Source: Streptomyces sp. V2I9
Lineage (GTDB): Bacteria; Actinomycetota; Actinomycetes; Streptomycetales; Streptomycetaceae
Length of the DNA: 64,000 bases
Direction of reading: 5' to 3'
Assembly (NCBI RefSeq): GCF_030817475.1
Contig: NZ_JAUSZJ010000002.1
Location: forward strand, 3,140,001 to 3,204,000
Shown: positions 26,146 to 47,407 of the stretch, in pieces
Position numbering within the stretch: position 1 is the stretch's first letter
Layout of the letters: every line of letters begins with the position of its first letter
Program-made: the position numbers and the translations under genes
Notes under the pieces: model-generated
Seen by the model: only the letters and a program-made list of their open reading frames with translations
Databases searched by the model: none
Told to the model about the DNA's origin: nothing

Positions 26146-26151
26146 CGGGGT

Positions 26152-28703: not shown

Positions 28704-28711
28704 AGGCATAG

Positions 28712-29317: not shown

Positions 29318-29328
29318 GACGTTGCCTC

Positions 29329-29813: not shown

Positions 29814-29857
29814 GGGGTGCCTTCCAGCCGGGGTTCCGGGTGTTTGCACAGGTGGGG

Positions 29858-29945
29858 TGCTAGGTGCGAGATCGCTGATGGGGGCGGGTGCGGGGTGCTA
29901 GCTGGGGTGCTAGACCTAGCAGCGGTGGCTGCTAGGCCTAGCAGC
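29858..29945. promoter_or_regulatory. CTAG-rich operator-like cluster between tra and the spd-like genes
   Basis: GTGCTAG occurs at 29858-29864, 29895-29901 and 29907-29913. GCTAGACCTAGC is at 29909-29920, and a perfect 18-bp palindrome GCTGCTAGGCCTAGCAGC at 29928-29945. CTAG is normally scarce in Streptomyces DNA, so six in under 100 bp is striking. The GCTAG core recurs in the promoter of the element's GntR gene. Probable binding region for that repressor, upstream of the 29813-28712 operon. Confidence 0.6.
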
Positions 29946-29953
29946 GCCCCAGG

Positions 29954-32125: not shown

Positions 32126-32152
32126 GGTGAGTCCGTTCTCCAGGGTGGGGGT

Positions 32153-32188
32153 GGGCCCGGACGACGGGGCGGGGAGCCGTCCGGGCCC
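32153..32188 (-). other. Hairpin in the tra leader
   Basis: A perfect 11-bp stem, GGGCCCGGACG (32153-32163) and CGTCCGGGCCC (32178-32188), between the zinc-binding RRQRL-type gene and tra. Its position mirrors the other leader hairpins of the element, but the loop is different. No U tract, so attenuation or mRNA stability is as likely as termination. Confidence 0.55.
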
Positions 32189-32210
32189 GAGGGGCGGGGA
32201 TCGCGTCGGG

Positions 32211-32600
32211 TCAGGCGGCGAGCTGCGGGGAATCCGCGCAGGTCACGCACATGCCGAGCGAGGTGGGGATGCGGTATCCGGCATCGGTGCGGCACTCAGG
32301 GCAGACCTGCCGTGCGGTGTTCGCCTTGGCGAGGGCCGCCCATTTGGCCGGCGTCATCGGCCGGACCGTCTTGGCCAGGTCGATCCGGTAGAGGTAGGCG
32401 ACGCGGACGGGGCTGGTGCCCTTGCGCCAGTAGCGGCGCGAGTACCACAGGACCTGTGCGGCGATGTCCTGCCCACCGGGCCGGAGCCCCACGGCCCTGA
32501 GCTGGCGGCGCGTGGCATAGCCATCCGGGGCCATGCGCCACGGGAACGTGGGCAGCCCGTAGCGGGAACCGGCCGGGTCGTAGAAGCGGTGGCCGCCCAT
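32211..32600 (-). CDS. RRQRL-motif zinc-binding protein (AICE accessory)
   Basis: A 129-residue protein typical of Streptomyces elements: FYDPAGSRYGLPTFPWRMAP, then ATRRQLRAVGLRPGGQDIAA (the RRQ-L motif), a basic central part, LYRIDLAKTVRPMTPAKWAA, and a zinc site CPEC ... CVTC at the C-terminus. Its precise function is unknown; it always travels with tra and DUF2637 genes in my recollection. The ATG at 32598-32600 touches the stop of the upstream DUF2637 gene. Confidence 0.8.
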   Translation of the reverse strand: MGGHRFYDPAGSRYGLPTFPWRMAPDGYATRRQLRAVGLRPGGQDIAAQVLWYSRRYWRKGTSPVRVAYLYRIDLAKTVRPMTPAKWAALAKANTARQVCPECRTDAGYRIPTSLGMCVTCADSPQLAA

Positions 32601-33496
32601 CAGGCGGCCTCCGCCTCAACCACCACCCGTGCGGCCCGCTCCGACTTCAGCGCGTCCCGCAGGAGGCGGCCGTTGGCCGACGAGGTACGGACCGCCTTGC
32701 GGATCGCCTCGGCCGTCAGCTTCTCGTCGGGCCAGTCGGCCGTTGCCGACCGCGCCTCGGCCAGCAGCTCATCCGGGGTGCGGGTCGGCCGGGGCGTACG
32801 GGCCGCCTGCGGTACCCGACCGGTCGCCCGGCGCGGACCCGACTCGGCAGAGGCCACCGGCCGCAGCACGGGCGGCTCAGCCGACTTCACCGGCTCGACT
32901 TCCGCGACCGGTCCGCCCACCGGCTCCGGGGCGACCACCGGGGCCGGGTCGGTCGACTGGGGGGCCGGGGACTCGGCCACGGCGGGAGGGGCCTCGGGGG
33001 CCGACTCTTGCAGGTCAGAACCCAACCGATTTGTTAGTGATTGCTGGGTTTCGTCCCGATCTGCACTGCGGGTGGTCCGGTGGTGCAGGACCTTGGCGAC
33101 GAGGTCGGAGCCGAAGAAGATGGCCCCGACCGGAAGAGAGGTTGCCAGGAGGACGAGGGCCCAGTTGGCGGGAGCCCAGTCGGCCAACTGCATCCGGGCC
33201 TCGCCGCCGCGCAGTGCGGGCACCAGGCCGTGCACGTAGTTGAGAACGAGGGACGCGGCGGTGTATCCCGCCAGGACCCGCAGGGCGAAGGTGCGGTCCT
33301 TGCCGGTGAGGACGAGGGTGGCGACGAGGGCCAGGGCCATCAGGCCGTCCACCACGAACGGGTAGAGGAAGGCTGCGGTGTCGTCGGCTCCGACCGTGCG
33401 GGCCACGTCGTGCTGTGCGTTCCACGAGACGCGGAAGGCCATACCGACCACGGCGACCAGAGCGGCGACCAGCAGGGACTTGGCGAAGCGGTTCAT
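32600..33496 (-). CDS. DUF2637-domain membrane protein
   Basis: A 298-residue protein. Four helices in the first 135 residues (SLLVAALVAVVGMAFRV; AAFLYPFVVDGLMALALVATLVL; LRVLAGYTAASLVLNYVHG; NWALVLLATSLPVGAIFFGSD) make the DUF2637 domain common in actinobacterial mobile elements. The cytosolic half is Pro/Ala-rich and ends in a helical segment (DELLAEARSATADWPDEKL, then AIRKAVRTSSANGRLLRDAL) that looks like a helix-turn-helix. Role in transfer or DNA sensing is not established. The ATG at 33494-33496 overlaps the GGDEF gene stop. Confidence 0.83.
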   Translation of the reverse strand: MNRFAKSLLVAALVAVVGMAFRVSWNAQHDVARTVGADDTAAFLYPFVVDGLMALALVATLVLTGKDRTFALRVLAGYTAASLVLNYVHGLVPALRGGEARMQLADWAPANWALVLLATSLPVGAIFFGSDLVAKVLHHRTTRSADRDETQQSLTNRLGSDLQESAPEAPPAVAESPAPQSTDPAPVVAPEPVGGPVAEVEPVKSAEPPVLRPVASAESGPRRATGRVPQAARTPRPTRTPDELLAEARSATADWPDEKLTAEAIRKAVRTSSANGRLLRDALKSERAARVVVEAEAA

Positions 33497-34164
33497 GCTG
33501 CCGCCCCCGTCCCGCTCGTGGTGCCGGGGCGGCCCTCGCGGCGACCGTTGACCGTCCGCAGCCCGGGGGCCGAACCGGGCGCCGGAGCGATGCTCCAACC
33601 CCCGCCATTCTGCTTGGTCCGGTACATCCGCTCATCCGCCCGGCGCAGCAGCACCGACAGCTCCTGGGCAGGACCCTCGGGGGCGTCGCTGGAAAGCGCG
33701 GCACCGATCGAGGCACCGACCATGAGGTCGTGTCCGTCGTGGCGCAGGGGGGCAGTGATCTCGCCGTGGAGACCTCCCAGCAGCCACGGCAGGGCGGCCG
33801 GGTCGGGCAGGGCGACAGCGGCGGCGAACTCATCGCCCCCGATCCGCCCCGCAACCGAGCGACGGTGGCCGCTGAGCGCGTCAGCGAAGCTCGCTCCGGT
33901 GGCCCGGATCACGGCGTCTCCCGCCGCGTGGCCGTGGGTGTCGTTGGCCGCCTTGAAGCCGTCCAGGTCCACCAGGACCACGGCGACGTGCGGGTGTCGG
34001 GCGAGGAGGCGCGTTGCCTGCTCCTCGAACGCGTCCCGCGTCCACAGGTTCGACAGCGGGTCGCGGCGGGCGATTTCGAACCGGCGGTGCATCCGAAGGC
34101 CGTGCACGGCCCACCCGGAGGCGAGCGGCAGAGCGGCGGACAGCGCGGTCAGGGCGTGGCTCAT
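33493..34164 (-). CDS. GGDEF protein, probable diguanylate cyclase
   Basis: A 223-residue protein with one N-terminal hydrophobic segment (about 4-22) and a GGDEF domain. LVDLDGFKAANDTHGHAAGD (64-83) holds the metal-binding Asp and the base-binding residues, and RIGGDEF places the catalytic GGDEF at 109-113, both intact. The RxxD product-inhibition site expected nine residues before GGDEF is missing (HRRS). It should make cyclic di-GMP, which in Streptomyces controls development through BldD, so the element may influence host differentiation or coordinate transfer. Overlaps both neighbours by four bases. Confidence 0.9.
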   Translation of the reverse strand: MSHALTALSAALPLASGWAVHGLRMHRRFEIARRDPLSNLWTRDAFEEQATRLLARHPHVAVVLVDLDGFKAANDTHGHAAGDAVIRATGASFADALSGHRRSVAGRIGGDEFAAAVALPDPAALPWLLGGLHGEITAPLRHDGHDLMVGASIGAALSSDAPEGPAQELSVLLRRADERMYRTKQNGGGWSIAPAPGSAPGLRTVNGRREGRPGTTSGTGAAA

Positions 34165-34478
34165 GCCGCTTCCCCCGCCCCGGTGAAACGGCCGGCGGAC
34201 TGGGCGGCGCGCAGGAAGGGGACGGTGCGGGTCAGCGCGTCGGCGTAGAGCGCGTCCCACGCGGCGATCTCGTCGCCGCCCTCCCCCTCGGCGGCCAGCT
34301 CCTTGATGACCTCGCGGGCCACGTCCAGACGGGCGGCGCGCTCCTCGGGGGACTCGTGGGTGAGCGGGCCCCGGAACAGGTCACGGTCCAGACCGAGAGG
34401 CAACTCATCGAATCCGAGGGCCATTTCCTCGAACTCGGCGGGGCTGAGCACCTGGTGGGTGCCGATGTACGTACGCAT
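34161..34478 (-). CDS. Small acidic protein of the element, function unknown
   Basis: A 105-residue soluble protein, MRTYIGTHQVLSPAEFEEMA followed by acidic helices (SPEERAARLDVAREVIKELA, EGEGGDEIAAWDALYADALT). No family recognised; it has no cysteines or obvious catalytic motif. The ATG at 34476-34478 has CAGGAG upstream and is preceded by copy 2 of the conserved leader hairpin. It overlaps the GGDEF gene start (ATGA), so the two are made together and may interact. Confidence 0.75.
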   Translation of the reverse strand: MRTYIGTHQVLSPAEFEEMALGFDELPLGLDRDLFRGPLTHESPEERAARLDVAREVIKELAAEGEGGDEIAAWDALYADALTRTVPFLRAAQSAGRFTGAGEAA

Positions 34479-34495
34479 GGTGGATCTCCTGAGAG

Positions 34496-34551
34496 GCGAA
34501 GGGACGGGGAGCCGGGGCGGTTGCGGTCTTGTGGTGAGAGGCGACCGCCCC
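34496..34551 (-). promoter_or_regulatory. Leader hairpin element, copy 2
   Basis: GCGAAGGGAC (34496-34505), left arm GGGGCGGTTGC (34514-34524), 16-nt loop identical to copy 1, right arm GCGACCGCCCC (34541-34551). It sits in the 89-bp gap between the 35038-34568 gene and the 34478-34161 gene, just before the latter's ribosome binding site. Confidence 0.75.
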
Positions 34552-34567
34552 GGGCGAGAGAGATGGT

Positions 34568-35038
34568 TCAGACGGTGGCGATGATCAGCGAGGCGACCAG
34601 AAGCCACAGGTGGTGGAAGGACTGATCCAGGGCGTAGGCCCCGGTGCCCAAGTGCGCGGCGGGCTTGCCCTCGGCGGTGACCGGTGCGAGGGAGTGGGCG
34701 GGTGTACCCAGTCCGTAGAACTCGGACTGCCCCAGGGCCTTGGCCAGGCGGGCAAGGGTGGTGCGGCGGTCCGCCCACCAGTGCGTGACCGCGTCCAGCC
34801 CCAAACCCAGCACGAGGCCGAGGAGAGACAGGTCCAGCCCCAGCAGCCAGGCCACGGGCAGCAGAACGGCGAGCTTGGTGGCGGTCAGCGAGGCGACGTG
34901 CCGGGCGTCGGCCAGGCGGCCGACCCATCCGGGCTTGCCCTTGGTGGCCGACTGGTGCGAGGTCTGCACCCAGTGATCACCCACACTGTGGGCGACGTAC
35001 AGGGCGACGAAAACAGCGGCGAACGTAGCAGCATCCAT
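34568..35038 (-). CDS. DUF3307-like membrane protein of the element
   Basis: A 156-residue protein with about four helices: ATFAAVFVALYVAHSVGDHW, VASLTATKLAVLLPVAWLL, LSLLGLVLGLGLDAVTHWWA, and DQSFHHLWLLVASLIIATV. The paired His/Asp motifs (AHSVGDHWVQTSHQ, LDAVTHWWADRR, ALDQSFHHLWL) match the pattern of the DUF3307 family. A metal-dependent role is possible but unproven. The ATG at 35036-35038 is preceded by copy 3 of the leader hairpin. First gene of the long minus-strand transfer/replication block. Confidence 0.72.
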   Translation of the reverse strand: MDAATFAAVFVALYVAHSVGDHWVQTSHQSATKGKPGWVGRLADARHVASLTATKLAVLLPVAWLLGLDLSLLGLVLGLGLDAVTHWWADRRTTLARLAKALGQSEFYGLGTPAHSLAPVTAEGKPAAHLGTGAYALDQSFHHLWLLVASLIIATV

Positions 35039-35058
35039 GCGGGACTCCCTGATGCGAG

Positions 35059-35115
35059 GCGAAGGGACAGAAGCCGGGGCGGGTCGTGGTCCTGTGGTGA
35101 GAGACGACCCGCCCC
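35059..35115 (-). promoter_or_regulatory. Leader hairpin element, copy 3
   Basis: GCGAAGGGAC (35059-35068), left arm GGGGCGGGTCGT (35076-35087), loop GGTCCTGTGGTGAGAG, right arm ACGACCCGCCCC (35104-35115). Compared with copy 1 the stem gains one pair and the closing C-G pair is T-A, while the loop changes at one base only. It precedes the 35038 start. Confidence 0.75.
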
Positions 35116-35536
35116 GGGGTGGAACCCGTAACTTCCGGCTCCCCTCAGCCCCGCCCGTACAGCCGAAGCGGCCGGACGGACAGGGGAGGCAACCGGCGCA
35201 GCAGAGGCGCTGCGAACAGGAAGGGGTTGCGCTGCACATCACGCGGAGACCCGCGTGGCCGCCTACTTGGCCGAGGAGAGGCGGCGTGATCCCCATTCAG
35301 TTGTCAAAGATCAGCAGCTCCGAGATGAGTGCGGTAACCCTCGATCGAGGGCTCCCGTTCACACGGGACTCACCAAGCGCTGATGGGCGCAGAACTGAGT
35401 AGAACCGTCCGACTCGGCCTGACCAACCTGGCTAGCCCGGTTCAGATGAGAACAACGTAGCCATCCTGGCTAGTCACGTCAACACCTGGCTAGGTTGGCT
35501 GTCCTAATCGGCTCAGGAGGTCGTAGCATCGAGGGC
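35116..35536. other. Divergent promoter region of the element's regulator and transfer block
   Basis: About 420 bp without a convincing gene between the minus-strand block (first start 35038) and the plus-strand GntR gene. The right part holds three CCTGGCTAG repeats; the left part is GC-rich and merges with leader hairpin copy 3. The promoters of both transcripts must be here. Confidence 0.55.
35427..35493 (+). promoter_or_regulatory. Three CCTGGCTAG repeats in the gntR promoter (putative operator)
   Basis: Exact 9-bp direct repeats at 35427-35435, 35465-35473 and 35485-35493, the last 44 bp before the GntR start. Repeat spacing is 38 and 20 bp. By analogy with KorSA of pSAM2, a GntR-family repressor that acts on its own promoter, these are likely autoregulatory sites. 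Confidence 0.65.
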
Positions 35537-36403
35537 ATGACCTTCACTCCCGAAGCACTGGACCCGGACGACGCCCGGCCGCCGTACGAGCAGGTGGCGA
35601 GCAGTCTGAGCGCCGCCATCAGGACTCGGAAGCTGGGCCCCGGAGAGAAGATTCCGTCTCAGAAGGAACTGACGGAGGCATATGGATTCGCCCGCGCCAC
35701 GATCCAACGGGCTCTCCGAGAGCTGGAAGACGAGGGGCTGATCGTCTCTCGTAAGGGCAGCGGCGTGTTCGTGCGGAACCGCACCGAACGGCCGGCGGGT
35801 CTTCGGCCGTACGTCGAGCAAGCTTTCGCCAGCCAGAACGTGTCGATTGACTTCGCAGGCTTCTCTAGCGAGACGCTCCACGGGGCACTTCAGGAGCCGA
35901 TCGACAAGATCCGCGTGGGGCGTCTGACTCCGTCAACCATCAACATCCGCATCCTGGTGCCAGACATGTCGGTGCCCCAGGCCGCGCCTGTTCGGCGAGA
36001 GGACGGTAGCGATGACCCCCGGCTCCGGGCCCGGATGCACGACATGATGGTGAGCTTCACTCGGAGCATCGCCAACACGATGCATGAACTCAGCGTGCTC
36101 GGGCTGGTCAGCGAAGCGAAGGTCAGCGTGCGCGTCCACAGCGGCACGCAGTTCTTCAAGCTCTACCTGATCAACCAGGACGACGCCTTTTTCGGGTACT
36201 ACCCGATCCGCCCGAACAAGGTCGTCACGCAAGGGGAGGCCATAGAGATCTATGACCTCGTCGGGGCGGATGCCACGCTGTTCCACTACTCGATGAACGA
36301 GGGGGAGTCGTCCAGTGGTGCTCAGCAGGTGAGCCAGGCCCGTATGTGGTTTGACAGCGTGTGGGAGACCATCGGGAGGGACTTTGACCCGGATGGAAAG
36401 TAA
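35537..36403 (+). CDS. GntR-family transcriptional regulator (KorSA-like)
   Basis: A 288-residue regulator. The winged helix is at about 10-80: PPYEQVASSLSAAIRTRKLG, GEKIPSQKELTEAYGFARAT, IQRALRELEDEGLIVSRKGSGVFV. The C-terminal 190 residues are not a standard UTRA domain; they include VSVRVHSGTQFFKLYLINQD, FFGYYPIRPNKVV and WFDSVWETIGRDFD, a pattern seen in GntR regulators of actinomycete elements. The start ATG at 35537 is preferred on family grounds, although GGAGG lies a rather distant 16 bp upstream. It overlaps the HAD gene. Probably represses transfer and replication genes and itself. Confidence 0.85.
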   Translation: MTFTPEALDPDDARPPYEQVASSLSAAIRTRKLGPGEKIPSQKELTEAYGFARATIQRALRELEDEGLIVSRKGSGVFVRNRTERPAGLRPYVEQAFASQNVSIDFAGFSSETLHGALQEPIDKIRVGRLTPSTINIRILVPDMSVPQAAPVRREDGSDDPRLRARMHDMMVSFTRSIANTMHELSVLGLVSEAKVSVRVHSGTQFFKLYLINQDDAFFGYYPIRPNKVVTQGEAIEIYDLVGADATLFHYSMNEGESSSGAQQVSQARMWFDSVWETIGRDFDPDGK

Positions 36404-37094
36404 TGACCTCAGGGGCGTGTTCGGGGCCACCAGGGCAGTCCTGTTTGACTTCGACGGACCCATCTGCGACGTGTTCGCGGGGCAGCCAGCCCCCGACATC
36501 GCGCGTCACCTGGCTGCGACTCTGGCGAACTTCGATCGCTCTCTGGAGGACAAGGCCCACGGCACAGACGATCCGATGGAGGTTCTTCGTCTGGCTCCGC
36601 AGGCTGGGGAGGCAGCCTTGCGGGCGATCGAGGATGAGCTGACCGAAGCGGAGGTGAGCGCGGTGCGCGTGGCCGGTCTGCCCGTGTCAGGTGCTGTGGC
36701 CGCGCTCGAAGCCGCCCGAACGCCAGGCCGGAAGGTCGCCATTGTCAGCAACAATTCGGCTGCTTGTGTAAATGCGTTCCTGCTGCTCCATGGTCTTCTG
36801 CCGTTGGTAGACACAGTGGTGGGCCGGGCCCCGTATCAGCCGGAAGCGATGAAACCCGCCCCCGACTCATTGGTACGCGCTGCCAGGGAGCTGGCTACTC
36901 CTCTGCGGGACTGCACGCTCATCGGGGATTCGGTGACCGACATCGAGGCCGCGAGGGGGACCGGCGGGCGCTCTGTTGGTTTCGCCAACAAGGCAGGTAA
37001 GGAACGTGCTCTAGCCGTCGCGGGGGCGGACGTGGTCGTAACCACGATGCTGGCTGTAGCTGATGCGTTGGCCCCCTCCCGGAGGCAGACTTGA
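36393..37094 (+). CDS. HAD-superfamily hydrolase
   Basis: A 233-residue phosphatase-like enzyme. Motif I DFDGPICDVF has the nucleophile Asp and the second Asp replaced in the common DxDG order; motif II is IVSNNS, motif III Lys is in MKPAPDSL, motif IV GDSVTDIEAA. The helical cap lies at about 40-110. The ATG at 36393 is embedded in the last codons of the GntR gene (11-bp overlap), so the two are co-translated. A sugar- or nucleotide-phosphate substrate is likely but not identifiable. It occupies the place where related elements carry a Nudix gene. Confidence 0.85.
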   Translation: MESNDLRGVFGATRAVLFDFDGPICDVFAGQPAPDIARHLAATLANFDRSLEDKAHGTDDPMEVLRLAPQAGEAALRAIEDELTEAEVSAVRVAGLPVSGAVAALEAARTPGRKVAIVSNNSAACVNAFLLLHGLLPLVDTVVGRAPYQPEAMKPAPDSLVRAARELATPLRDCTLIGDSVTDIEAARGTGGRSVGFANKAGKERALAVAGADVVVTTMLAVADALAPSRRQT

Positions 37095-37315
37095 GCTAGC
37101 GAATGTGAGGCGTGCCGTAAAGCGGCTGGCCCCTCGTGGCATCCACCGCTGACGTCAACATCGACTTACAGCGGCTGTTTCAGGCTTCCGAGACAGGATT
37201 GGAACGGCTGGACGGGGCGGTTTAGACGACAGTTCACAAGCACGGCTTTAGCGGTCGGACCGACCCAGGGAAGAACAAGTCAGGTTTCCTCCCTTCTTGA
37301 GCGACAGAATGAAAA

Positions 37316-37346
37316 CGGGCGCGGCCTCATTGCGAGGCCGCGCCCG
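37316..37346 (-). terminator. Terminator of the DUF4365 gene
   Basis: A perfect 13-bp stem, CGGGCGCGGCCTC and GAGGCCGCGCCCG, with loop ATTGC. On the minus strand it is followed by TTTTCATTC, so it is a proper intrinsic terminator for the gene ending at 37374. The rest of the 280-bp gap 37095-37373 contains no gene that I can support. Confidence 0.82.
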
Positions 37347-37373
37347 CCTGGGATTTCGAGATACAAGGCACTT

Positions 37374-38372
37374 CTATCCCATTTCCATTTCACGCCTCTT
37401 CCTTACGCGATCCATCGCAAAGCGAATAAACGTAAGAATCAATACCTTATGACCAAAGGAAGGAACAAGCGCCCCGGCCGTAATCCAGAATGTCCCCCAC
37501 CACCCACTATCCCCGTCGGCATCGATTACGGGCAGCCAGAAAAAGTTGGCTGCAATCATCCACAACCACTTGCCAGTCTCAATGGGGAATCTCCCTACCC
37601 TAAGCTCGAAAAAGATGACTATCGACATGGTGAACATGAAAAGATAGAGGTTGGATACCCACAACCATGCAGGCATGTCCGATGAGCCTTCGACGAAGCG
37701 AATTTGATAGGGCCATACCCACATCATGAGCATGATTAGAAGCATCATCGGCAGAGCCGCAGCAAGGTTTCTACTTATAGCCTTAAGTCGATCCTCATAC
37801 TTGAGTGCAATGTTCGCCAACTCCTCAAATAGGGGATTCGGGGCGGTTGCTGGGTCCAGCCCACGTCTCGCACGAATCGCCTCATTGAGGGCTTCTTCGT
37901 CAGTCGCCGCCCGAATGCGCATTCTTTCTTCGCCAGCATAGTTTGCGACTTCCGTATAGAATTGCTCGATTGTTTCCGGGTTAAGAGGAGAGGAGTTCGC
38001 CACTTGCACCCATCCTGGGCTTTCCTCTACAGACTTTAACCGATCAGTGAGGTTAACCCAAAATAACTCCCGCTTTTTCATATCGTACACGACACCAAGA
38101 ATGGGAATACGGCTTTGCCGCCACTCGTCGAAGTGGTCGTCAACGGGAACGGCGTACCCATTCACTCGCTTGTATTTCTTGCCACTCTTCACCTGAATGG
38201 CGATCCAATAAGGCGTTCTCTTGCCACCGCGCGTGAAGTTTACGATCATGTCCTCGCCGTGATCGTTCCCACCGTCGATCTCCTGGACGATTTGCTCATG
38301 ATCTTCAAGCAGCGCGCGGAGAGCGTTGACGCCCGCCCTCTCGATCTTGCGGCTCGCACGAACAGTCGACAC
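37374..38372 (-). CDS. DUF4365 (PD-(D/E)XK-like) protein with C-terminal membrane helices
   Basis: A 332-residue protein unlike its neighbours in base composition: AT-rich third positions, ATA and AGA codons. Residues 1-130 match the DUF4365 layout: RKIERAGVNALRALLEDHEQ, then GGNDHGEDMIVNF (acidic metal site) and WIAIQVKSGKKYKR (Q-x-K of a nuclease-type core), as in Mrr-like restriction folds. A charged helix (150-200) leads to four hydrophobic segments (LAAALPMMLLIMLMMWVW; LWVSNLYLFMFTMSIVIFFE; WLWMIAANFFWLPVI; FWITAGALVPSFGHKVLILTF). GTG start with GAGGGGGG upstream. Located beside attR, the usual cargo position; an anti-phage or competition function is plausible. Confidence 0.82.
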   Translation of the reverse strand: MSTVRASRKIERAGVNALRALLEDHEQIVQEIDGGNDHGEDMIVNFTRGGKRTPYWIAIQVKSGKKYKRVNGYAVPVDDHFDEWRQSRIPILGVVYDMKKRELFWVNLTDRLKSVEESPGWVQVANSSPLNPETIEQFYTEVANYAGEERMRIRAATDEEALNEAIRARRGLDPATAPNPLFEELANIALKYEDRLKAISRNLAAALPMMLLIMLMMWVWPYQIRFVEGSSDMPAWLWVSNLYLFMFTMSIVIFFELRVGRFPIETGKWLWMIAANFFWLPVIDADGDSGWWGTFWITAGALVPSFGHKVLILTFIRFAMDRVRKRREMEMG

Positions 38373-38594
38373 TGGCCCCCCTCAAGTTGAGTCAGCGTCA
38401 GGGTAGTGGTAGGCACAGACACTTAGGGATGGATGCGCTGCCCAGCCACGCTATGACCTGGTGCATTGGGGGCGCTCGTTGTCCTGGTCTTTGTTCAGTA
38501 CGCCACTGGCCGCCATCGTTCACTCCCGTACGCGCACCACCTCTGACCTGGCGCTTGAATCCTTGCGGACACCTCTGAACGGCCACTCGCACAG

Positions 38595-38714
38595 TTGGAA
38601 AGCGTGTTGGGGGCAACCCCTCACGAGTTCGAATCTCGTATCCTCCGCCATTGCTCTCACCGGGCAATACGTCGAAGGGCCCCACCGCTTGCGGTGGGGC
38701 CCTTCGACGTTGTC
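38595..38714. repeat. attR direct repeat of the integrated element
   Basis: Right-hand copy of the 93-bp exact repeat (38595-38687) with continued identity after two loop mismatches. It contains the displaced original 3' half of tRNA-Ser(GGA) without a 5' half, so it is not a functional tRNA gene. Confidence 0.94.
38670..38709 (+). terminator. Displaced tRNA-Ser terminator (attR copy)
   Basis: The same 18-bp stem as at 24254, with loop CTTG instead of TTCG. It is the chromosome's original tRNA terminator, now separated from the gene. Confidence 0.8.
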
Positions 38715-38773: not shown

Positions 38774-39460
38774 TCAGATCCTGCGGGCAACGATCATGAG
38801 CGCAGTGGGGTGAGACCGTCCGGGATGCTCCAGTTCCGTGACGGATGTGACGCGCAGACCCGCCTGGGCAAGGACTCGGCGCCAGCCAGGGATGTCCAAC
38901 TCCCACCGGGGCACTGAACGGCACCTGCCGTCAGGCAGACGGAACATACTGTGCCGCGGCTGGGGGCCGTCGCTCGCCGCGACACCGGTGCGGCGCGGGT
39001 GCGGCACCGAGAAGGCCACGATCCCGTGGGGTCGGAGGCGGCGGGCAACGCAGGCGAGGAGTTGTCCGGGTTCGGCTAAGCCAACGACGCCGAAGACCGA
39101 GTAGACGATGTCGAACGTCGTCGACGTCTGGCGCAGGTATCGCAACGCGTCGCACGCCAGGAGCGTCAGACCGGGAACATCTCCGTATCGGTCGCGGGCG
39201 TACTGGATCTGCAGGTCGATCAGGTCGATGGCCGTCACCAGGGCTCGGTGGGAACCGGCGAGATATGCCGCATTCTGCCCCTGTCCGCAGCCGAGTTCCA
39301 GGATTCTGCGGCCACGCAGTGCGCGGCCCAGCACTTCCGCTCCTGGTCCGATGCCTGGATACGTTCCCCACTCGAGCCGAGCGGTCAGCGTCGACGGTTC
39401 GCCCGAGACCGGTCGGGTCTGCAGGGCGTAGGCATACCACGGGGAACACTTGTTGATCAC
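38774..39460 (-). CDS. Class I SAM-dependent methyltransferase
   Basis: A 228-residue enzyme. SAM-binding motif I is ILELGCGQGQNAAYLAGSH (about 54-72), motif II acidic residue in VTAIDLIDLQIQYARDRY, and a later FDIVYSVFGVVGL and LLACVARRLRPHGIVAFSVP are the usual motifs IV-V of Methyltransferase_11 proteins. The GTG at 39458-39460 with GGAGATAT before it is a good start. Substrate unknown; the short length argues for a small molecule or peptide rather than DNA. It lies just outside attR and a hairpin separates it from the next gene, so it may be transcribed alone. Confidence 0.85.
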   Translation of the reverse strand: MINKCSPWYAYALQTRPVSGEPSTLTARLEWGTYPGIGPGAEVLGRALRGRRILELGCGQGQNAAYLAGSHRALVTAIDLIDLQIQYARDRYGDVPGLTLLACDALRYLRQTSTTFDIVYSVFGVVGLAEPGQLLACVARRLRPHGIVAFSVPHPRRTGVAASDGPQPRHSMFRLPDGRCRSVPRWELDIPGWRRVLAQAGLRVTSVTELEHPGRSHPTALMIVARRI

Positions 39461-39517
39461 ACATATCTCCGATGCACAGAGAGTCGGGAGCAGTCGACCG
39501 GACCGAGGTAGGTGCTG

Positions 39518-39549
39518 CCGCTCGGGGCGCGCCGGCACGCCCCGAGCGG
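39518..39549 (-). terminator. Terminator of the 39558-40313 gene
   Basis: A 12-bp perfect stem, CCGCTCGGGGCG (39518-39529) and CGCCCCGAGCGG (39538-39549), eight bases past the stop codon. It lies between the unknown gene and the methyltransferase gene. Confidence 0.65.
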
Positions 39550-39557: not shown

Positions 39558-40313
39558 TCAGTCCACGAACTCGACTCGATGCGCGTAGACCTGGGCGATC
39601 CATCCCTTCTTGAACGCCTCCAGGTCCTGCCGGAAGGTCGTCATGGTCGCTCCGTACGGCGCCACTACGCCGCCGGTCTGGTCGGCTGCCGCCTGGCAAC
39701 CGTGGACCAGCCGGCCGCCCAGAGCGGCATGGGCCTTGATGGACTCGATGCGACGGTGCTCGTTGAACCAGGCTCCGTGGTAGAGCTCGTCGAGCATGCG
39801 TCCTTCCTCGTCATCCAGCCCGAAGACCACCGATGTGGCTGCGGGAAAGAACCAGCACGGGCCGATGTTGGAGATGTGACCGTCCAGCTCCACCTTGTTC
39901 AGCGCCATGAGCGTGGCCGCCTCGTGCAGCATCCGGAGGTGGTCCGTCGTGACATGCGGGAGGCCGGCGGAATCAAGGCGATCGCTCCGGAAGAGGTAGC
40001 CGTAGACGTCGTAGGCGGTACGGAGTACCAACGCGGGATCGCTGGTGGGCTTCGCATGTGCCCTGATGAAGTTCAGGGCCAACTGCTCCACAGCACTGTC
40101 GGTCGTCTCATCGACCGGAATGAGCTCCGTCAGCACCTTCTCCCAGTCCGCCACCAGCCACGAGTGGGACTCCAGCCGGAAGAAGTACTCAGCCGAATCG
40201 ATGGTGAGGTTTCGCCCCTCGACCCGCACTCCGGGAAGCCGGTTCCAGCCGGGGTGAAACTCGGACGGGAGGGTGACTTCGATACTGCCTGCGACAGCGA
40301 CACCGTTCATCAT
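39558..40313 (-). CDS. Unrecognised soluble protein in the accessory block
   Basis: A 251-residue protein with no family I can name. It starts MMNGVAVAGSIEVTLPSEFH and is rich in aromatic residues and His (YFFRLESHSWLVADWEKVL; VYGYLFRSDRLDSAG; LDGHISNIGPCWFFPAATS; YHGAWFNEHRRIESIKAH). There is no signal peptide, membrane helix or P-loop. The two ATG codons at 40308-40313 are equally possible starts, with AAGGGA a few bases upstream in an AT-rich leader. Base composition is slightly lower in GC than the core genes. It diverges from the three-gene module. Confidence 0.78.
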   Translation of the reverse strand: MMNGVAVAGSIEVTLPSEFHPGWNRLPGVRVEGRNLTIDSAEYFFRLESHSWLVADWEKVLTELIPVDETTDSAVEQLALNFIRAHAKPTSDPALVLRTAYDVYGYLFRSDRLDSAGLPHVTTDHLRMLHEAATLMALNKVELDGHISNIGPCWFFPAATSVVFGLDDEEGRMLDELYHGAWFNEHRRIESIKAHAALGGRLVHGCQAAADQTGGVVAPYGATMTTFRQDLEAFKKGWIAQVYAHRVEFVD

Positions 40314-40661
40314 TTTTTATCCCTTTCTTGCATACAGGCATAGGGATGCCCCGGGCGCAGCGAGGCACCTTCGCCTCGAACGCCTGATCGTGAAGAATCG
40401 ATCACCTATTCACTCGGGAGCCCCGGTGGTGATCGGGATGAACTGTAGGCCAACCAGGAATCCCGCACCCCGCGACCAAAGGGCTCCGGCTGAATAATTT
40501 TCAGGCAGCGCACCTCATGCCCCATGAGACCTGGGTAGAAATATTTTTCCCGCCTCCCTGGGAGGCCCCGGCAGCCGCCCCCGTCACCGAGCCGCCTCGG
40601 GCGCACCGCATACTGGCCTCATGGCCAATGAGTCCGGCAAGGCGCCCAGATAAGGGAATAC
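40314..40661. other. Divergent, partly AT-rich promoter region
   Basis: About 350 bp between the unknown minus-strand gene and the plus-strand module. Two AT-rich patches (AATAATTTTCAG near 40491 and AGAAATATTTTTCCC near 40536) stand out in this GC-rich chromosome and are candidates for Lsr2 binding. No gene is evident. Confidence 0.5.
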
Positions 40662-40721
40662 ATGACATCGTACGAAGAAGCTATTAATACTTCTGATGCG
40701 CTGAGTGGGGATGCCGCCTGA
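40662..40721 (+). CDS. Possible 19-residue leader peptide
   Basis: ATG at 40662 encodes MTSYEEAINTSDALSGDAA, ending at a TGA whose last base is the first base of the next gene's ATG (TGATG). TAAGGGA lies five bases upstream. The stop-start coupling and acidic, low-complexity product suggest either a translational-coupling leader or a real micro-protein. It could equally be chance. Confidence 0.4.
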   Translation: MTSYEEAINTSDALSGDAA

Positions 40722-42019
40722 TGAGCGTGGGAGGAGCAGGCATCCCGCGCCTGCAAGAACTGACATACGTCGAATCCGCCGCGCTCGCCGTGGCGCGGGG
40801 GGAACCGTTCGAGAAGATCCGCCTGGCGATTCTTGATCGCGCGGAAAAGTCGGCGCGTGGAACCGACCATGACGGTTCCTTCGATCCGGAGAAATGGCGC
40901 CGCCGGCGCGTCGACACCATGAGCTACGTACACAACACCGTGGACGTGCTGAAGGAGTTGATGCGGCTCGGCTGGGTTGAACGGCACGTACTGCCCTCGA
41001 CACCGCGTTCCGCATACGCGCACGCGGATGTGACCTACGAGGCAACGCCCGCGGGTCTCGCCTGGACCGAACTGGTCCAGCAGGACCGGCTCAGCGGTTA
41101 CAACGCGCTGGTGGGTGCGCTGATCGACGCGCATCCCCAGTTCGAGGGCTACCTGCGCGTGGTGGGGGCTCGGCCGCACAGCACGACCGACCACCTCACT
41201 GTCCCGTTGCTACGCGCCGACGCTCCGGCGGACGGTGGGCGCGAACGCTACCTGACGGCATTCATCAACCATGTCACCGACGCATCACGCGCCGGAGACC
41301 TCGGCTGGTCCGCCTCCCCCGAAGCCATCGAGAAGGACCTGCGTGCCTACGTCACTCGGGCCGTGCACCGATCCGAGGCGCGGGCGAAACAGCGCGAATC
41401 CAAGCAGCGCCCGGTGGACGGCGCGGCTTCGGCCGCGCCGTTGATCACCCGCAAGCGGTTCAGCCTGCTGTGCGAGGAGGCGACCGTGCGCCTCGCGTTC
41501 AGTTCCGCCGGCTGTCCGATGGACTACATCAGCCATGAGCTGCTCCGACGCTGGACCCGGTTCCTCGGGCTGGCCAATTTCAGCTACTACGCTCCCGGGC
41601 CGCCCGCCCTGCGCCTGTGGGCCACGGGCCGTGTCATGGGAGCAGGAAGGCAACCGGACTTCCAGCGCTTCGTCGGGCGGGAGGTCCGGGCGGCCGCTCT
41701 CACGGCACTGCCCCAGATCTGGAGCACTCCGGACGGACATCTGGACGACGCCTCCTACCACCCGGTATGGCGCGTCCGCGCGGCTGTCTGCTGGAAGCTC
41801 AGAATCAGCGACGACGAATTCGATGCGGCTATCGGTGCTGCCTATCGCGGCGATTTTCCCGGCCTCGGGTTCAGAGTTCATCTGGACGAAGCGATCCAGC
41901 TCAGAGCACCAGGGTCGGTCCGCCCTCTCGTACTGTCCCAAGGCGACGGCCAGCGCCGGGTTTTCCACGTGATGAGTCTTCTCGGCGCCCGCGCCGACGA
42001 GGAGGCTCTGACACGATGA
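40721..42019 (+). CDS. Winged-helix-like protein of a three-gene module
   Basis: A 432-residue soluble protein. The region TMSYVHNTVDVLKELMRLGW, VERHVLPSTPRSAYAHADVT and YEATPAGLAWTELVQQD (about 66-127) looks like a winged helix reading a partner or DNA. The middle is basic (VHRSEARAKQRESKQRP), and the C-terminal half (ITRKRFSLLCEEATVRLAFS; YISHELLRRWTRFLGLANFS) is not recognised. Start ATG at 40721, GGGG 10 bp upstream, touching the stop of a 19-codon frame. The stop overlaps the ATPase start (ATGA). Tight coupling to an ATPase suggests an adaptor or target-recognition subunit of a defence or transposition-like complex. Confidence 0.8.
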   Translation: MSVGGAGIPRLQELTYVESAALAVARGEPFEKIRLAILDRAEKSARGTDHDGSFDPEKWRRRRVDTMSYVHNTVDVLKELMRLGWVERHVLPSTPRSAYAHADVTYEATPAGLAWTELVQQDRLSGYNALVGALIDAHPQFEGYLRVVGARPHSTTDHLTVPLLRADAPADGGRERYLTAFINHVTDASRAGDLGWSASPEAIEKDLRAYVTRAVHRSEARAKQRESKQRPVDGAASAAPLITRKRFSLLCEEATVRLAFSSAGCPMDYISHELLRRWTRFLGLANFSYYAPGPPALRLWATGRVMGAGRQPDFQRFVGREVRAAALTALPQIWSTPDGHLDDASYHPVWRVRAAVCWKLRISDDEFDAAIGAAYRGDFPGLGFRVHLDEAIQLRAPGSVRPLVLSQGDGQRRVFHVMSLLGARADEEALTR

Positions 42020-43326
42020 ACTCCGAAAATCTCCTCCCCGGAATCGTCTGGATCAAGCGCGAGTGGAAATTCCACAACAACCCCTTCCCCGCAACCGGGA
42101 TGGCCCGGATGGGAGGGGTGGACGATCGTGAGAACGGACTCCTGTACGAACCCGGCGTACACGCCGACCAACTGCGCGAAACCATTGAGAAGTTTGTCCT
42201 GGGAATGTCTTTCTCTGGACTGAAATTTGGGTATCTCTGGTCGGCAGGTGTGATTCCCAATGATTCCGACGCCCGAGGTTTCGGCAAGTCGGTCCTGATG
42301 CAGCACTTGTCGAGGAGGATCAACGAGGACTTCGGCCGTTCCGTCTACCAAGAGGCCGGCCTCGACGGATCCGACGCGGATGAAGTGCCCATCTGCTCCC
42401 TCTTCACCAGCTTCGACACCGTTCACGTCCGCTCGCTGGGCGCGGCGCTGTTCGCTGCCGTCGAGTACGCGGTGAAATTCCGTGCGGACCATGCGCCGCC
42501 CTTGGCCGGACAATTGCGGCTGCGCATCGCCGAGCGCATCGGCGACCATGACGTGAAGGCGCTCACGAAAGAGGTCGCAGACAGCCACCGTGCTCTACGA
42601 GGCAGGACTCTGGGCCCCCCGGACGACAAATTGATCGTCGCCCTGTGCGACGAGGACCCCAATGCCGCAGCGGATTACCTGGCGAAGATCACTCCGATTT
42701 CGCGCTCGCGCAATGGGGCTGTGCACATGGCCACCTTCCTCGTCTTCGCCGCAGCGGCCGGCATCAAACACGTACTGCTCTGCTGCGACCAGCTGGAGGA
42801 CCTGGCCAGCACAACCACGGCGAAGTCCAAACGAGACCTCGAAGTCGAGCGGTTCCGTGATGTCATCGTGGAGACGCTTCCCATGGCGGACATGGTGACG
42901 CTCGTGGCCACCATGCATCCGCGTGCGTCCCTGACCATGAAGCAGGCGTGGGCCCTCGCCGATCTGCCCAGCTTCGACCTCACCCCCGGCAACCGCTTCA
43001 GCACAGTGGAACTACCGCCTCTCCACGACGCTGCCCAGGCCGCACAACTGCTCAAACGCTATCTCGCCGCGGCCGTGAAGGAGGGAGTGCAACGCGACGA
43101 GCTCTATCCCTTCACCAGCGACGCCATCGTCAGTCTCTTCGAACGCTCGGCCCGCAAACCACGGGACGTCCTGCGCAAGGCGCACACCGTGTTGGTGGCG
43201 GCATCAGGTCAGAACCTGACCACCATTACCGGGTCCGACGTCGAAACCATCCTCGGGCTGCCGGGCCGGAATGAGTCGACGGCACAGAGCGAGATCCCCG
43301 GAACGCTCGACTGGAGCCTCGGCTGA
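42016..43326 (+). CDS. P-loop ATPase of the three-gene module
   Basis: A 436-residue ATPase. Walker A SDARGFGKSVLMQHLSRR has GFGKS at 88-92; Walker B HVLLCCDQLEDLA has Asp258 followed by Gln rather than Glu, a variant seen in STAND/KAP and phage-defence ATPases. An opening segment IVWIKREWKFHNNPFPATGM and a C-terminal helical/winged end (YPFTSDAIVSLFERSARKPR, DVLRKAHTVLVAASGQ) resemble AAA+ ATPases of the MoxR/Orc type with a lid. It starts within the last codons of the upstream gene. No helicase or nuclease motif is visible. Likely motor or switch of the module. Confidence 0.82.
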   Translation: MNSENLLPGIVWIKREWKFHNNPFPATGMARMGGVDDRENGLLYEPGVHADQLRETIEKFVLGMSFSGLKFGYLWSAGVIPNDSDARGFGKSVLMQHLSRRINEDFGRSVYQEAGLDGSDADEVPICSLFTSFDTVHVRSLGAALFAAVEYAVKFRADHAPPLAGQLRLRIAERIGDHDVKALTKEVADSHRALRGRTLGPPDDKLIVALCDEDPNAAADYLAKITPISRSRNGAVHMATFLVFAAAAGIKHVLLCCDQLEDLASTTTAKSKRDLEVERFRDVIVETLPMADMVTLVATMHPRASLTMKQAWALADLPSFDLTPGNRFSTVELPPLHDAAQAAQLLKRYLAAAVKEGVQRDELYPFTSDAIVSLFERSARKPRDVLRKAHTVLVAASGQNLTTITGSDVETILGLPGRNESTAQSEIPGTLDWSLG

Positions 43327-43337
43327 CCCGACACCGC

Positions 43338-44456
43338 TCAGATCCTTTCCGTCAGTGCTTTCCACAACCACAGCTCAGGAGCGGTTCTCCAGTAGGTGGC
43401 CCCTCCCTTCTTGGGCGGGACGAGCTGCTCGTAGCGCCGGACCAGCTCCGCCACGGCGGTCTCGGTGTGCTTGCGCATATCTCGTCGAAGTGCCCCATGC
43501 CAATCGAAGTCGAACGACTCATCGTGCAACCGCGACAGAGGCAGGAACCGACAGCTCGCCCAATGGATCAGCTCCGGGGCATAGCGGATGAGCTTGCCGT
43601 GCCCCTGCTGACGGCTCTTCGGGATCGCATCCAGCGCCTCCTGCGCCGCGCGCAGCGTCTCGACGGCACGCATGACGCCCAGCGGAGTCATGTGAGGGTG
43701 GAAGAGGGCCAGATAGGACGGCGACCGGATGTCTTCCCAGAGCGCCAGCAGTCCCTCGGCCCCCACAACCTGGTGGGCGATCTCGGGCCCCGGACCCGAA
43801 AGGCAGGCAAGAGCCCTGGTCACCTCCGGCAGTGAGTAGGTTCTGCCGCCTGGTCCCTGAGCCATGCCCCGTCGTACGGAGAAGGTCCACCGTTCCCAGT
43901 CCGCGTTCATCAGCCGGCGGATGTGGGGACACAAGTGGAGGCGGTCCTGAGCGTCCCGAACGTTCCGCAACTGGTCCGCACACCCATGCAGCCGACGGGC
44001 CCGCTCCCGCTCAGCACCACAGAAGACCTCGACCTTCAACAACGTACGCGCCAGGTGGGTGGGCCCGAGTTCGTCCCACACCAGGGCCACCGTCCTGAGC
44101 CTCTGGAGGCCGTCGAAGAGTTCGACGCCGTGGAGCCAGAGGTGGTCCGAGAAGCCTCCTCCGGACCGGGCGGGAACAACCACGTCCGCACCGAGGACGA
44201 TCGAGCCGACCAGACCGAATTCCTCAGGGCTCTCACGGAGCAGCCGTTCCAGCGCGAGCGTCTGCGGGGTGTCGTGCAAGTACCCGCGGCCGGTACGCAG
44301 ACGGTCGGCGGCATCCGGTCCGGTCACGAGCTGAACCAGATCGGTCGCCAGAACCTCGAGTTGGAATGACCGCGAGTACCGCGACACGCTCAGAGGGCGC
44401 ACCAGGATGCTCGGGCCGCCGCTCAACGCAGGTGCGTCAGAAAATCTTTCGTTCAC
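43338..44456 (-). CDS. Protein with a DGxQR-like (DGQHR/DUF262-type) motif
   Basis: A 372-residue soluble protein. HGVELFDGLQRLRTVALVWD (residues 110-129) resembles the D-G-Q-(H/Q)-R box of DndB/DGQHR or DUF262 proteins, which occur in DNA-modification and defence loci. LLKVEVFCGAERERARRLHG, then ADQLRNVRDAQDRLH, would be the following F/N-rich segment. The C-terminal part is helical with many Arg and Trp (WASCRFLPLSRLHDESFDFD; PELWLWKALTERI). GTG start at 44454-44456 without a clear ribosome site; a GTG at 44399-44401 is an alternative. Its stop faces the ATPase stop 11 bp away. The similarity is weak and by eye. Confidence 0.72.
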   Translation of the reverse strand: MNERFSDAPALSGGPSILVRPLSVSRYSRSFQLEVLATDLVQLVTGPDAADRLRTGRGYLHDTPQTLALERLLRESPEEFGLVGSIVLGADVVVPARSGGGFSDHLWLHGVELFDGLQRLRTVALVWDELGPTHLARTLLKVEVFCGAERERARRLHGCADQLRNVRDAQDRLHLCPHIRRLMNADWERWTFSVRRGMAQGPGGRTYSLPEVTRALACLSGPGPEIAHQVVGAEGLLALWEDIRSPSYLALFHPHMTPLGVMRAVETLRAAQEALDAIPKSRQQGHGKLIRYAPELIHWASCRFLPLSRLHDESFDFDWHGALRRDMRKHTETAVAELVRRYEQLVPPKKGGATYWRTAPELWLWKALTERI

Positions 44457-46735: not shown

Positions 46736-47341
46736 TCAGAACTTCTCCACCTTCGCCCCCTCGGGCACTTCATAGCACCCGGATGTCGCCGTGATGCCCA
46801 GGCTGGGCTTCGCCCGGTCGCGGTACTGAACGATCCAGACGCTGACCTTCTTGGCGTCGTTGTCCGCGACCAGGTTGAGATTCTCGTTCCGGCTGTTGTC
46901 CCGGTACTCCTTCTTGAGCACCCAGTCACCGGAGTTCAGCTTCTTCTTGAGGTTCTCCATCGCCAGGTCGGAGTCGGCGGCGGAGCCCGGCTGGAAGTTC
47001 CAGGGATGGAAGACCCGGAAGAACCGATCCGGGTCCTTGCCCTCGCACTCCTTGACGCCGGGGCCGGGCTCGGACGCCTTGCCAGGCACCCCTGCGTACT
47101 CATAGATCTGGCTGGAGATCGCTTCGAGAGCGTCGGCGGCCTCGTCGGTCGTGGCCACACCGGCGTACGGCACACCCGAGGTCGCGTCACCGGAATCCGT
47201 GGATCCGTCGCTGGACGAACGGGAGTTTTCGGTGTCGTTCATGCCACATCCACTGAGAAGAAGAGCTGTCAGGGCGAGAGTGGTGGGAATCCGGCCGCCG
47301 CGGGAAGAGCGGCGCCCGGTGGTACTCGGATAGTGGAACAA
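46736..47341 (-). CDS. Lipoprotein, last gene of a WXG100/hydrolase set
   Basis: About 201 residues from the TTG at 47339-47341, which has AGAGGA at good distance; a GTG at 47369-47371 is the alternative. The signal RIPTTLALTALLLSGC ends in a lipobox Cys. The mature part has a Ser/Asp-rich tether, TTDEAADALEAISSQIYEYA, two further cysteines (VKECEGKD, TSGCYEVP) and a YRDNSRNENLNLVADNDAKK segment. No enzyme family is recognised. It follows the hydrolase gene on the same strand, an arrangement that would suit an immunity or accessory lipoprotein; this is inference. Confidence 0.78.
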   Translation of the reverse strand: MFHYPSTTGRRSSRGGRIPTTLALTALLLSGCGMNDTENSRSSSDGSTDSGDATSGVPYAGVATTDEAADALEAISSQIYEYAGVPGKASEPGPGVKECEGKDPDRFFRVFHPWNFQPGSAADSDLAMENLKKKLNSGDWVLKKEYRDNSRNENLNLVADNDAKKVSVWIVQYRDRAKPSLGITATSGCYEVPEGAKVEKF

Positions 47342-47407
47342 CGGAGATCCTCTGTCGGGTGCGGTCGGCACGCGATACGCGGTGGTTGTCGCGGGTGCGG
47401 AGGGCTG

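What the first reader, a model, noticed from the sequence alone, without database searches (positions are those of the whole stretch)
40662..44456. Unassigned three-gene module: winged-helix protein, coupled P-loop ATPase, and convergent DGxQR-motif protein
The first two genes overlap by ATGA and the third ends 11 bp from the ATPase. The ATPase has GFGKS and an hhhhDQ Walker B; the third protein has FDGLQR, reminiscent of DndB/DGQHR or DUF262 proteins of DNA-modification loci. The block lies next to an AICE at a tRNA gene, has AT-rich promoter patches and matches no defence system whose gene set I can name (not BREX, DISARM, Dnd, Zorya, Wadjet or Gabija by the motifs seen). It is the best candidate here for an undescribed system.
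Basis: partly seen in the sequence, partly recalled or inferred. Interest (0 to 1): 0.75.

Follow-up and report, generated by a model that had tools for sequence, protein, structure and literature searches.

The report
Mobile winged-helix/AAA+ ATPase gene pair
A rare pair of bacterial genes, a DNA-binding protein and a partner ATPase that always travel together with their own DNA control site and exchangeable helper genes, looks like an undescribed defence module carried on mobile DNA, but its function is untested.

Summary
The conserved core is a gene PAIR: P0001 (predicted three winged helices) and P0002 (AAA+-like ATPase). They are adjacent in 16 of 16 loci, including an Actinocrispum, a Chloroflexi MAG, another actinobacterial class and an Azospirillum plasmid. 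In Streptomyces they occur in the same 6 genomes (of 295 and 291 searched). No Pfam cut-off, NCBIfam, PADLOC or PHROGs match names them. The third gene, P0003, is AIPR-like (not DndB/DUF262), present in 5 of 16 loci and also found alone. Other loci carry a PD-(D/E)XK-like nuclease (4 of 16) and/or a zinc-ribbon/HARE-HTH-like protein (12 of 16). New here: a palindrome CTCATGnnnCATGAG upstream of the pair in 14 of 15 loci; its only exact copy in the 7.2-Mb host genome is at this module. Several copies are tRNA-linked mobile cargo, and some sit near Shedu, Hma or HNH genes. Best reading: a self-regulated, mobile DNA-scanning defence core with exchangeable effectors. It resembles SspB-SspC or Orc/Cdc6-triple-wHTH-REase systems in plan, without detectable homology to SspB/SspC. 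Function is inferred, not shown.

The parts
40721..42019 (+). P0001, predicted three-winged-helix protein (432 aa); core component 1
   Evidence: AF2 model pLDDT 78.7, pTM 0.72; VIA-align rows for three separate WH segments; adjacent to the ATPase in 16 of 16 loci
42016..43326 (+). P0002, P-loop ATPase with AAA+-type C-terminal lid (436 aa); core component 2, ATGA overlap with P0001
   Evidence: Invariant Walker A/B; weak AAA_16, E 0.095; lid 363-416 matches RuvB (low-confidence model)
43338..44456 (-). P0003, compact AIPR-like protein with DGxQR motif (372 aa), convergent; accessory
   Evidence: hhalign to AIPR proteins prob 98.2, E 3e-14; 5 of 16 loci
40514..40528 (.). Palindromic site CTCATGCCCCATGAG, 207 bp upstream of P0001 (putative operator)
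40618..40632 (.). Second copy of the site with one mismatch (CTCATGGCCAATGAG)
39558..40313 (-). c7, unknown protein (251 aa), divergent; accessory, part of an independent Streptomyces cassette
   Evidence: 5 of 16 module loci; 29 of 164 Streptomyces genomes match, 27 near full length, own included
38774..39538 (-). c6, class I SAM methyltransferase (254 aa); accessory
   Evidence: Methyltransf_11 1.4e-13; 6 of 16 module loci; deletion remnant in a relative
38588..38712 (+). Copy of the tRNA-Ser 3' end = attR side of the neighbouring AICE; the methyltransferase gene ends about 60 bp beyond it (context, not part of the module)

Best explanation
A mobile, self-regulated DNA-targeting defence module. 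Its invariant core is a multi-winged-helix DNA reader (P0001) and an AAA+ ATPase (P0002). The core is kept in check by a protein, most simply P0001, bound to the palindrome CTCATGnnnCATGAG upstream of the operon. Shown: pairing, conservation and near-uniqueness of the palindrome, variable accessories, mobile contexts, defence-type neighbours in some loci. Predicted: winged-helix architecture, AAA+ lid. Inferred: DNA scanning, effector recruitment, autoregulation, anti-invader function.
For: Adjacent pair in 16 of 16 loci (L013 and L018 look like the same species) and the same 6 genomes in Streptomyces. Correlated distances of the two proteins: r=0.971 over 12 loci, 0 of 2000 permutations reach it. 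WH model. AAA+-like lid. PD-(D/E)XK-like gene next to the pair in 4 of 16 loci with invariant H67, D70, E83, K85. P0003 AIPR-like. Palindrome exact in 11 and within 1 mismatch in 14 of 15 loci; the best of 179 other permuted half-sites reaches 1 locus; one exact copy in the own genome, at the module. Of 15 hand-picked neighbour proteins from 8 loci, 8 match PADLOC at E<=0.001: HmaB and HmaC in L012, Shedu in L015, HNH in L014 and L016, a DruM-like methylase and a PDC-M33A-like protein in L025, and weakly a helicase in L019. Mobile cargo: tRNA-Thr end repeats flank the pair plus zinc-ribbon gene in 4 of the 6 element loci.
Against: No phage or plasmid challenge exists. The window copy and its two nearest relatives (L007, L014) lack both the nuclease and the zinc-ribbon protein, so the effector must be P0003, an unrecognised gene, or nothing. 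P0001 is frame-broken in L014. The ATPase model is poor (pLDDT 51.7). P0003 and the methyltransferase show more non-synonymous than synonymous changed codons against L007. 7 of the 15 picked neighbours, including all picks of L009 and L017, match no defence model; in L010 the Pfam-tested neighbours are mobility and housekeeping genes. Neighbour hits could reflect shared mobile hotspots rather than shared function, and generic methylases and HNH genes are weak markers. No relative in the phage collection.
Confidence: 0.52

Rival explanations
1. An element-maintenance or mobility module: the WH/AAA+ pair helps integrative elements replicate, segregate, choose target sites or stay silent, and is not a defence system.
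For: In L008, L013, L018 and L024 the pair and the zinc-ribbon gene lie between tRNA-Thr end repeats. In L010 the next genes are a tyrosine integrase, an HTH protein, DUF3631, MobC and relaxase, with clustered homologues in L008, L011, L013 and L018. The lid resembles RuvB, and TnsC structures are among the rows (Z 5.0, 156 residues, rmsd 4.8).
Against: Clustering showed no homologue of the IME integrase in L014-L017 (other integrases were not searched there). Four loci carry a nuclease-like gene, and others lie near Shedu or Hma genes. In the window the module is outside the AICE ends.
Confidence: 0.2
2. A signal-responsive transcription switch: P0001 and P0002 regulate the divergent c7/methyltransferase cassette, a small metabolite-modifying unit.
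For: Shared intergenic region with the palindromes; elsewhere c7 and the methyltransferase belong to a cassette with NsdA-family regulator, NUDIX, a gene annotated as aminoglycoside phosphotransferase family, and a HAD gene.
Against: The palindrome accompanies the pair also where c7 is absent (9 of those 10 loci have it within 1 mismatch) and is missing from 10 stand-alone c7 loci. The pair occurs with nuclease-like genes in other phyla.
Confidence: 0.13
3. The window copy is a decaying remnant of a once complete system and does nothing now.
For: Nuclease and zinc-ribbon genes absent; a relative (G005) keeps only a methyltransferase fragment at the same site; L014 has a broken P0001.
Against: Open frames with mostly synonymous change in P0001/P0002 versus L007, and intact palindromes.
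Confidence: 0.1

Closest known systems
Orc/Cdc6 ATPase - DndG-like triple-wHTH protein - REase(-ASCH) neighbourhoods predicted in PMC10853773
   Same: AAA+-like ATPase, predicted multi-winged-helix partner, in some loci a restriction-nuclease-like gene, mobile context
   Different: Separate small genes; no ASCH domain in the proteins scanned with Pfam; zinc-ribbon/HARE-HTH-like and AIPR-like accessories; own conserved palindrome. That paper's supplementary tables could not be read, so overlap with its gene lists is not excluded
SspB-SspC of the SspABCD phosphorothioate system
   Same: Plan: multi-winged-helix DNA reader plus AAA+ ATPase in one operon (as described in PMC10853773, passages)
   Different: No detectable homology to DUF4007/SspB (hhalign prob 0.2), only a P-loop-level match to SspC (prob 6.9, E 0.005). 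The host carries a separate Ssp-like operon about 0.5 Mb away (SspA, C, D named by order and sequence, only DUF4007 by a family search)
AIPR proteins (PF10592)
   Same: P0003 aligns over 306 columns with Streptomyces AIPR proteins
   Different: 372 aa instead of about 710; no direct Pfam match; DGxQR where those have NGAQT
Shedu, Hma and Druantia-type defence genes
   Same: Some homologous loci lie near genes of these systems
   Different: Not part of those systems; the pair has no PADLOC match

Membership tests
Ssp (SspABCD/E) | SspB (DUF4007) homologue | tested here: not met
   No PF13182 match to P0001 at E<=1; hhalign A3 vs seven DUF4007 proteins, five of them from Ssp-like operons, probability 0.2
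Ssp (SspABCD/E) | SspC-type ATPase | tested here: not met
   hhalign A8 vs five SspC probability 6.9, E 0.005, P-loop region only; SspC about 1200 aa vs 436
Ssp (SspABCD/E) | SspA desulfurase and SspD beside them | tested here: not met
   None among the window genes scanned with Pfam around the module (ORF 46736-47371 was not scanned); the host's Ssp-like operon is elsewhere
Orc/Cdc6 - triple-wHTH - REase systems | Orc/Cdc6-clade AAA+ ATPase | tested here: inconclusive
   AAA+ lid match to RuvB/clamp loaders/TnsC, Z 4.6-7.0 in a low-confidence model; AAA_16 E 0.095
Orc/Cdc6 - triple-wHTH - REase systems | Partner with several wHTH domains of the DndG/SspB/FokI kind | tested here: inconclusive
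   Three WH-like segments in the model (Z 8.2, 6.4, 6.3) and a FokI row (Z 6.7, rmsd 5.9, 181 residues); Foldseek nothing at E<=0.001
Orc/Cdc6 - triple-wHTH - REase systems | Active REase in the operon | tested here: inconclusive
   PD-(D/E)XK-like motif gene in 4 of 16 related loci, none in the window; no Pfam or PDB sequence match supports the fold
AIPR | Direct match to PF10592 | tested here: not met
   P0003 has no Pfam match at E<=1
AIPR | Profile similarity to AIPR proteins including the motif region | tested here: met
   hhalign prob 98.2, 306 columns, against three proteins of which two were Pfam-tested as AIPR and the third is 93% identical to one of them
   No Pfam or NCBIfam match for P0003 at E<=1
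Known defence systems in PADLOC 2.0.0 | Match of P0001-P0003, c7, nuclease-like or zinc-ribbon protein | tested here: not met
   library dates from 2023
MADS | MADS genes beside each other | tested here: not met
   The window methyltransferase matches mad2 (E 2.7e-15, profile 266-442 of 492), probably as a generic SAM methyltransferase; P0001-P0003 and c7 match no mad model
Anti-phage defence in general | Protection against phage or plasmid | not testable with these tools
   needs an experiment

The most novel reading that the evidence does not exclude
A defence class built on one portable sensor core, a three-winged-helix reader plus AAA+ ATPase with its own operator, into which evolution plugs different effectors (PD-(D/E)XK nuclease, zinc-ribbon/HARE-HTH reader, AIPR-like protein), some copies of which move as integrase-less, att-flanked cassettes at tRNA genes.
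Probability: 0.4. Interest if true: 0.72.

Novelty: new variant of a known kind. Interest (0 to 1): 0.55.

Why it matters
If true, it adds a DNA-scanning defence core that the 2023 defence catalogue searched here does not hold, with a ready handle: a dedicated palindromic site that predicts which protein binds where. It would also give a function hypothesis for compact AIPR-like proteins, and show how integrase-less cassettes at tRNA genes can spread defence genes among Streptomyces.

Tried and rejected
Rejected: a DndB/DUF262 reading of P0003 (no match; AIPR instead); Ssp membership; MADS on the strength of the methyltransferase's mad2 match; a conserved leader peptide upstream of P0001 (the shared stop at +1 only reflects ATGAGN-type starts); the promoter and terminator scans (1 promoter-like site against 0.6 expected, 1 terminator-like site against 2.8); the palindrome as an RNA hairpin: it folds strongly in L009, L012 and L013 (z -7.1, -8.2, -4.3) but not in the window (z 0.09, four loci tested), and the CCC/GGG spacer occurs in either orientation, so a DNA site is favoured, not proven. 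Led nowhere: PDB sequence searches for the ATPase, zinc-ribbon and nuclease profiles and for the WH and P0003 profiles (best E 0.019 and 0.044, unrelated proteins); Foldseek of P0001 (no E<=0.001); PHROGs; phage tblastn for P0002 and P0003 and plasmid tblastn for P0003, the nuclease-like and the zinc-ribbon protein. Literature: five listings looked for a description of such a module and I saw none in the titles and abstracts listed; two searches sought Ssp and Streptomyces-island papers. Of PMC10853773 I read section 22 and passages; of PMC12839542 passages only; the other papers I saw only as listings. Dropped before counts: partial or doubtful ATPase hits in G604, G619 and G721 were not counted as members; L013, L014 (broken P0001) and L024 were left out of the distance test, L019 also of its permutation part; L019 was left out of the palindrome survey. 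The count of 16 loci takes each genome or contig once, the window's included. Not searched: whether the host encodes the nuclease-like or zinc-ribbon protein elsewhere; integrases in L014-L017 and L025; gene families of L024.
Full report
WHAT IS THERE. The window is from a Streptomyces-like genome (G000, 7.16 Mb; the genus is inferred from the named relatives). P0001, P0002 and P0003 have no Pfam match above cut-off (best for P0002: AAA_16, E 0.095), and none in PADLOC, NCBIfam or PHROGs.

THE CORE IS A PAIR. P0002 relatives were found in 6 of 295 Streptomyces genomes (own included), P0001 in 6 of 291, the same genomes. Seven further loci came from named genomes (five Streptomyces, Actinocrispum wychmicini, a Chloroflexi MAG), one from a viral-contig collection (L024; its ORF sizes and order resemble the integrative-element loci, but its other genes were not searched by family), one from another class of the phylum (G338) and one from an Azospirillum plasmid. 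Of 396 genomes across the phylum 4 matched (own, G338, one fragment, one doubtful); of 296 in the class only the own genome; of 138 in G338's order 2 (G338 and a doubtful one). So it is rare. In all 16 loci the WH gene and the ATPase gene are adjacent; in Azospirillum the order is reversed. The loci were found through the ATPase; the reverse search with P0001 is. L013 and L018 are nearly identical and count as one species in effect. In L014 the WH frame is broken. Distances of the two proteins across loci correlate at r=0.982 (13 loci) and 0.971 (12, without Azospirillum; 0 of 2000 permutations); shared species history contributes to this.

WHAT THE PROTEINS ARE. The P0001 model (pLDDT 78.7, pTM 0.72) contains three winged-helix-like segments: residues 12-124 (MarR 2qww_A, Z 8.2, rmsd 2.7, 76 aligned), 126-302 (2oqg_C, Z 6.4, rmsd 2.1, 66) and 320-422 (Cul1 WH, 7b5l_C, Z 6.3, rmsd 2.5, 68). 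The longest row is FokI (2fok_A, Z 6.7, rmsd 5.9, 181 aligned; all). Foldseek gave nothing at E<=0.001, and Z below 8 alone is not decisive. The P0002 model is poor (pLDDT 51.7); its C-terminal lid matches RuvB (8efy_D, Z 7.0, rmsd 1.8, 54 aligned), and TnsC is among the rows (9g0f_A, Z 5.0, rmsd 4.8, 156). The Walker motifs are invariant in 13 sequences. P0003: a weak similarity (about 27% identity) led to Streptomyces proteins of about 710 aa, two of which were scanned and match AIPR (E 4e-31 and 7e-34); hhalign of the two alignments gives probability 98.2 over 306 columns. AIPR stands for abortive infection phage resistance protein (recalled); that is a label, not a tested function of these proteins.

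VARIABLE PARTS. Next to the pair, 4 of 16 loci (L009, L012, L019, L025) have a gene with invariant H67, D70, E83, K85, the spacing of a PD-(D/E)XK site; the fold is inferred from the motif, since Pfam and PDB sequence searches gave nothing relevant. Twelve of 16 have a protein with a Cys4 zinc-ribbon pattern and a HARE-HTH-like region (Pfam E 0.0035 in one of two members scanned, below cut-off). P0003 and c7 are in 5 of 16, the methyltransferase in 6 of 16, all in one Streptomyces group; L010 and L024 have a more distant methyltransferase (38% and 41%, partial) at the locus edge. The window, L007 and L014 lack both the zinc-ribbon and the nuclease-like gene. P0003 relatives of 37-46% identity occur without the pair in G262, G162, G185 and G284. 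c7 matches in 29 of 164 Streptomyces genomes, 27 of them near full length, own included. In the 10 loci read away from the pair (8 genomes, 2 plasmids) a methyltransferase similar to c6 follows in all 10 (one partial); a regulator of one cluster is in 8 of 10 (one member scanned: NsdA family), and a relaxase-like gene of one cluster in 7 of the 8 genome loci (one member scanned). So c7 plus methyltransferase is an independent cassette, often near mobility genes, that became linked to the pair in one group.

A DEDICATED DNA SITE. Reading the upstream regions showed a palindrome CTCATGnnnCATGAG, in 9 of 15 loci 203-208 bp before the WH start, in the others between 67 and 435. Within 450 bp, 11 of 15 loci have it exactly and 14 of 15 with at most one mismatch; of 179 other palindromes made by permuting the half-site the best reaches 1 locus. 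The Chloroflexi locus has a longer, different perfect palindrome. In the own genome the only exact copy is at the module (40514-40528), with a one-mismatch copy at 40618-40632 and three further one-mismatch sites elsewhere; the control, the pattern read backwards, has 17, so the site is not enriched genome-wide. The five other Streptomyces genomes searched each have a site at the module among 4 to 15 genome-wide; exact sites elsewhere exist in G141 and G176. It is absent (at most one mismatch) from the 10 stand-alone c7 loci and the 4 stand-alone P0003 loci. Since only P0001 and P0002 are common to the loci that carry it, P0001 is the most likely binder. This is inference.

CONTEXT. The window module begins about 60 bp outside the attR copy of an AICE at tRNA-Ser. 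L007 (other genes between tRNA and module) and L016 also have a tRNA-Ser(GGA) gene about 2-6 kb from the module. G005 keeps only a methyltransferase fragment between the tRNA-end sequence and the same downstream gene, most simply a deletion scar. In five loci a tRNA-Thr gene lies within about 0.7 kb before the WH gene; in L008, L013 and L018 a 20-nt copy of its end with one mismatch, and in L024 two copies (0 and 2 mismatches), bracket the pair plus zinc-ribbon gene, before the integrase; L008 has a further copy (2 mismatches) just after the tRNA; L010 has 4 mismatches, L011 none. Known defence-type genes lie within the fetched flanks: HmaB/HmaC in L012, Shedu SduA in L015 (E 7e-150), HNH nucleases in L014 and L016, a DruM-type methylase and a PDC-M33A-like protein in L025, a weak helicase match in L019: 8 of 15 neighbour proteins that I picked from 8 loci. 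The survey was selective; picks of L009 and L017 gave none. The window methyltransferase itself matches mad2 of MADS (E 2.7e-15), probably as a generic SAM methyltransferase.

HOW IT MAY WORK. Most likely an ATP-driven DNA-bound sensor core with exchangeable effectors against invading DNA, repressed through its own palindrome (confidence 0.52). The published proposal for SspC, an Orc/Cdc6-type ring translocating with the triple-wHTH SspB (PMC10853773, passages), is the nearest analogy, but homology was not found. [quoted passage not shown] this is the closest described kind, so I call the present system a new variant of it rather than a new category.

Noticed in passing
window 24147-38712: AICE at tRNA-Ser(GGA): tRNA end repeated at 38588-38712; integrase 23970-25580(-), DUF3987, Prim-Pol and a weak FtsK match; carries a GGDEF (diguanylate cyclase) gene at 33493-34260, which seems unusual cargo.
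   Followed up: partly
window 37374-38372: DUF4365 protein with C-terminal hydrophobic segments just inside attR; PADLOC match to Aga_REase-PNTD (E 2e-7), possibly a second defence gene.
   Followed up: no
L079 6908-13753 (own genome, C2 about 2.671-2.678 Mb): SspA-SspB(DUF4007)-SspC-SspD-like operon: the host probably has a phosphorothioate system; only DUF4007 was found by a family search, the others named by order and sequence.
   Followed up: partly
L094-L103: Widespread Streptomyces cassette: NsdA-family regulator, NUDIX, c7, a gene annotated in one record as aminoglycoside phosphotransferase family, SAM methyltransferase, HAD; in 7 of 8 genome loci near a MobA-type relaxase-like gene. 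Function unknown; c7 is strongly conserved.
   Followed up: partly
L008, L013, L018, L024: Pair plus zinc-ribbon gene between tRNA-Thr end repeats next to an integrase element (CIME-like arrangement).
   Followed up: partly
L025 11971-19264: Possible defence island: PDC-M33A-like protein, C5 methylase (DruM-like), REase-ARP nuclease directly downstream of the module.
   Followed up: no
L047-L050: Stand-alone compact AIPR-like genes (P0003 relatives); in L050 the neighbour looks by eye like an integrase, not scanned.
   Followed up: partly
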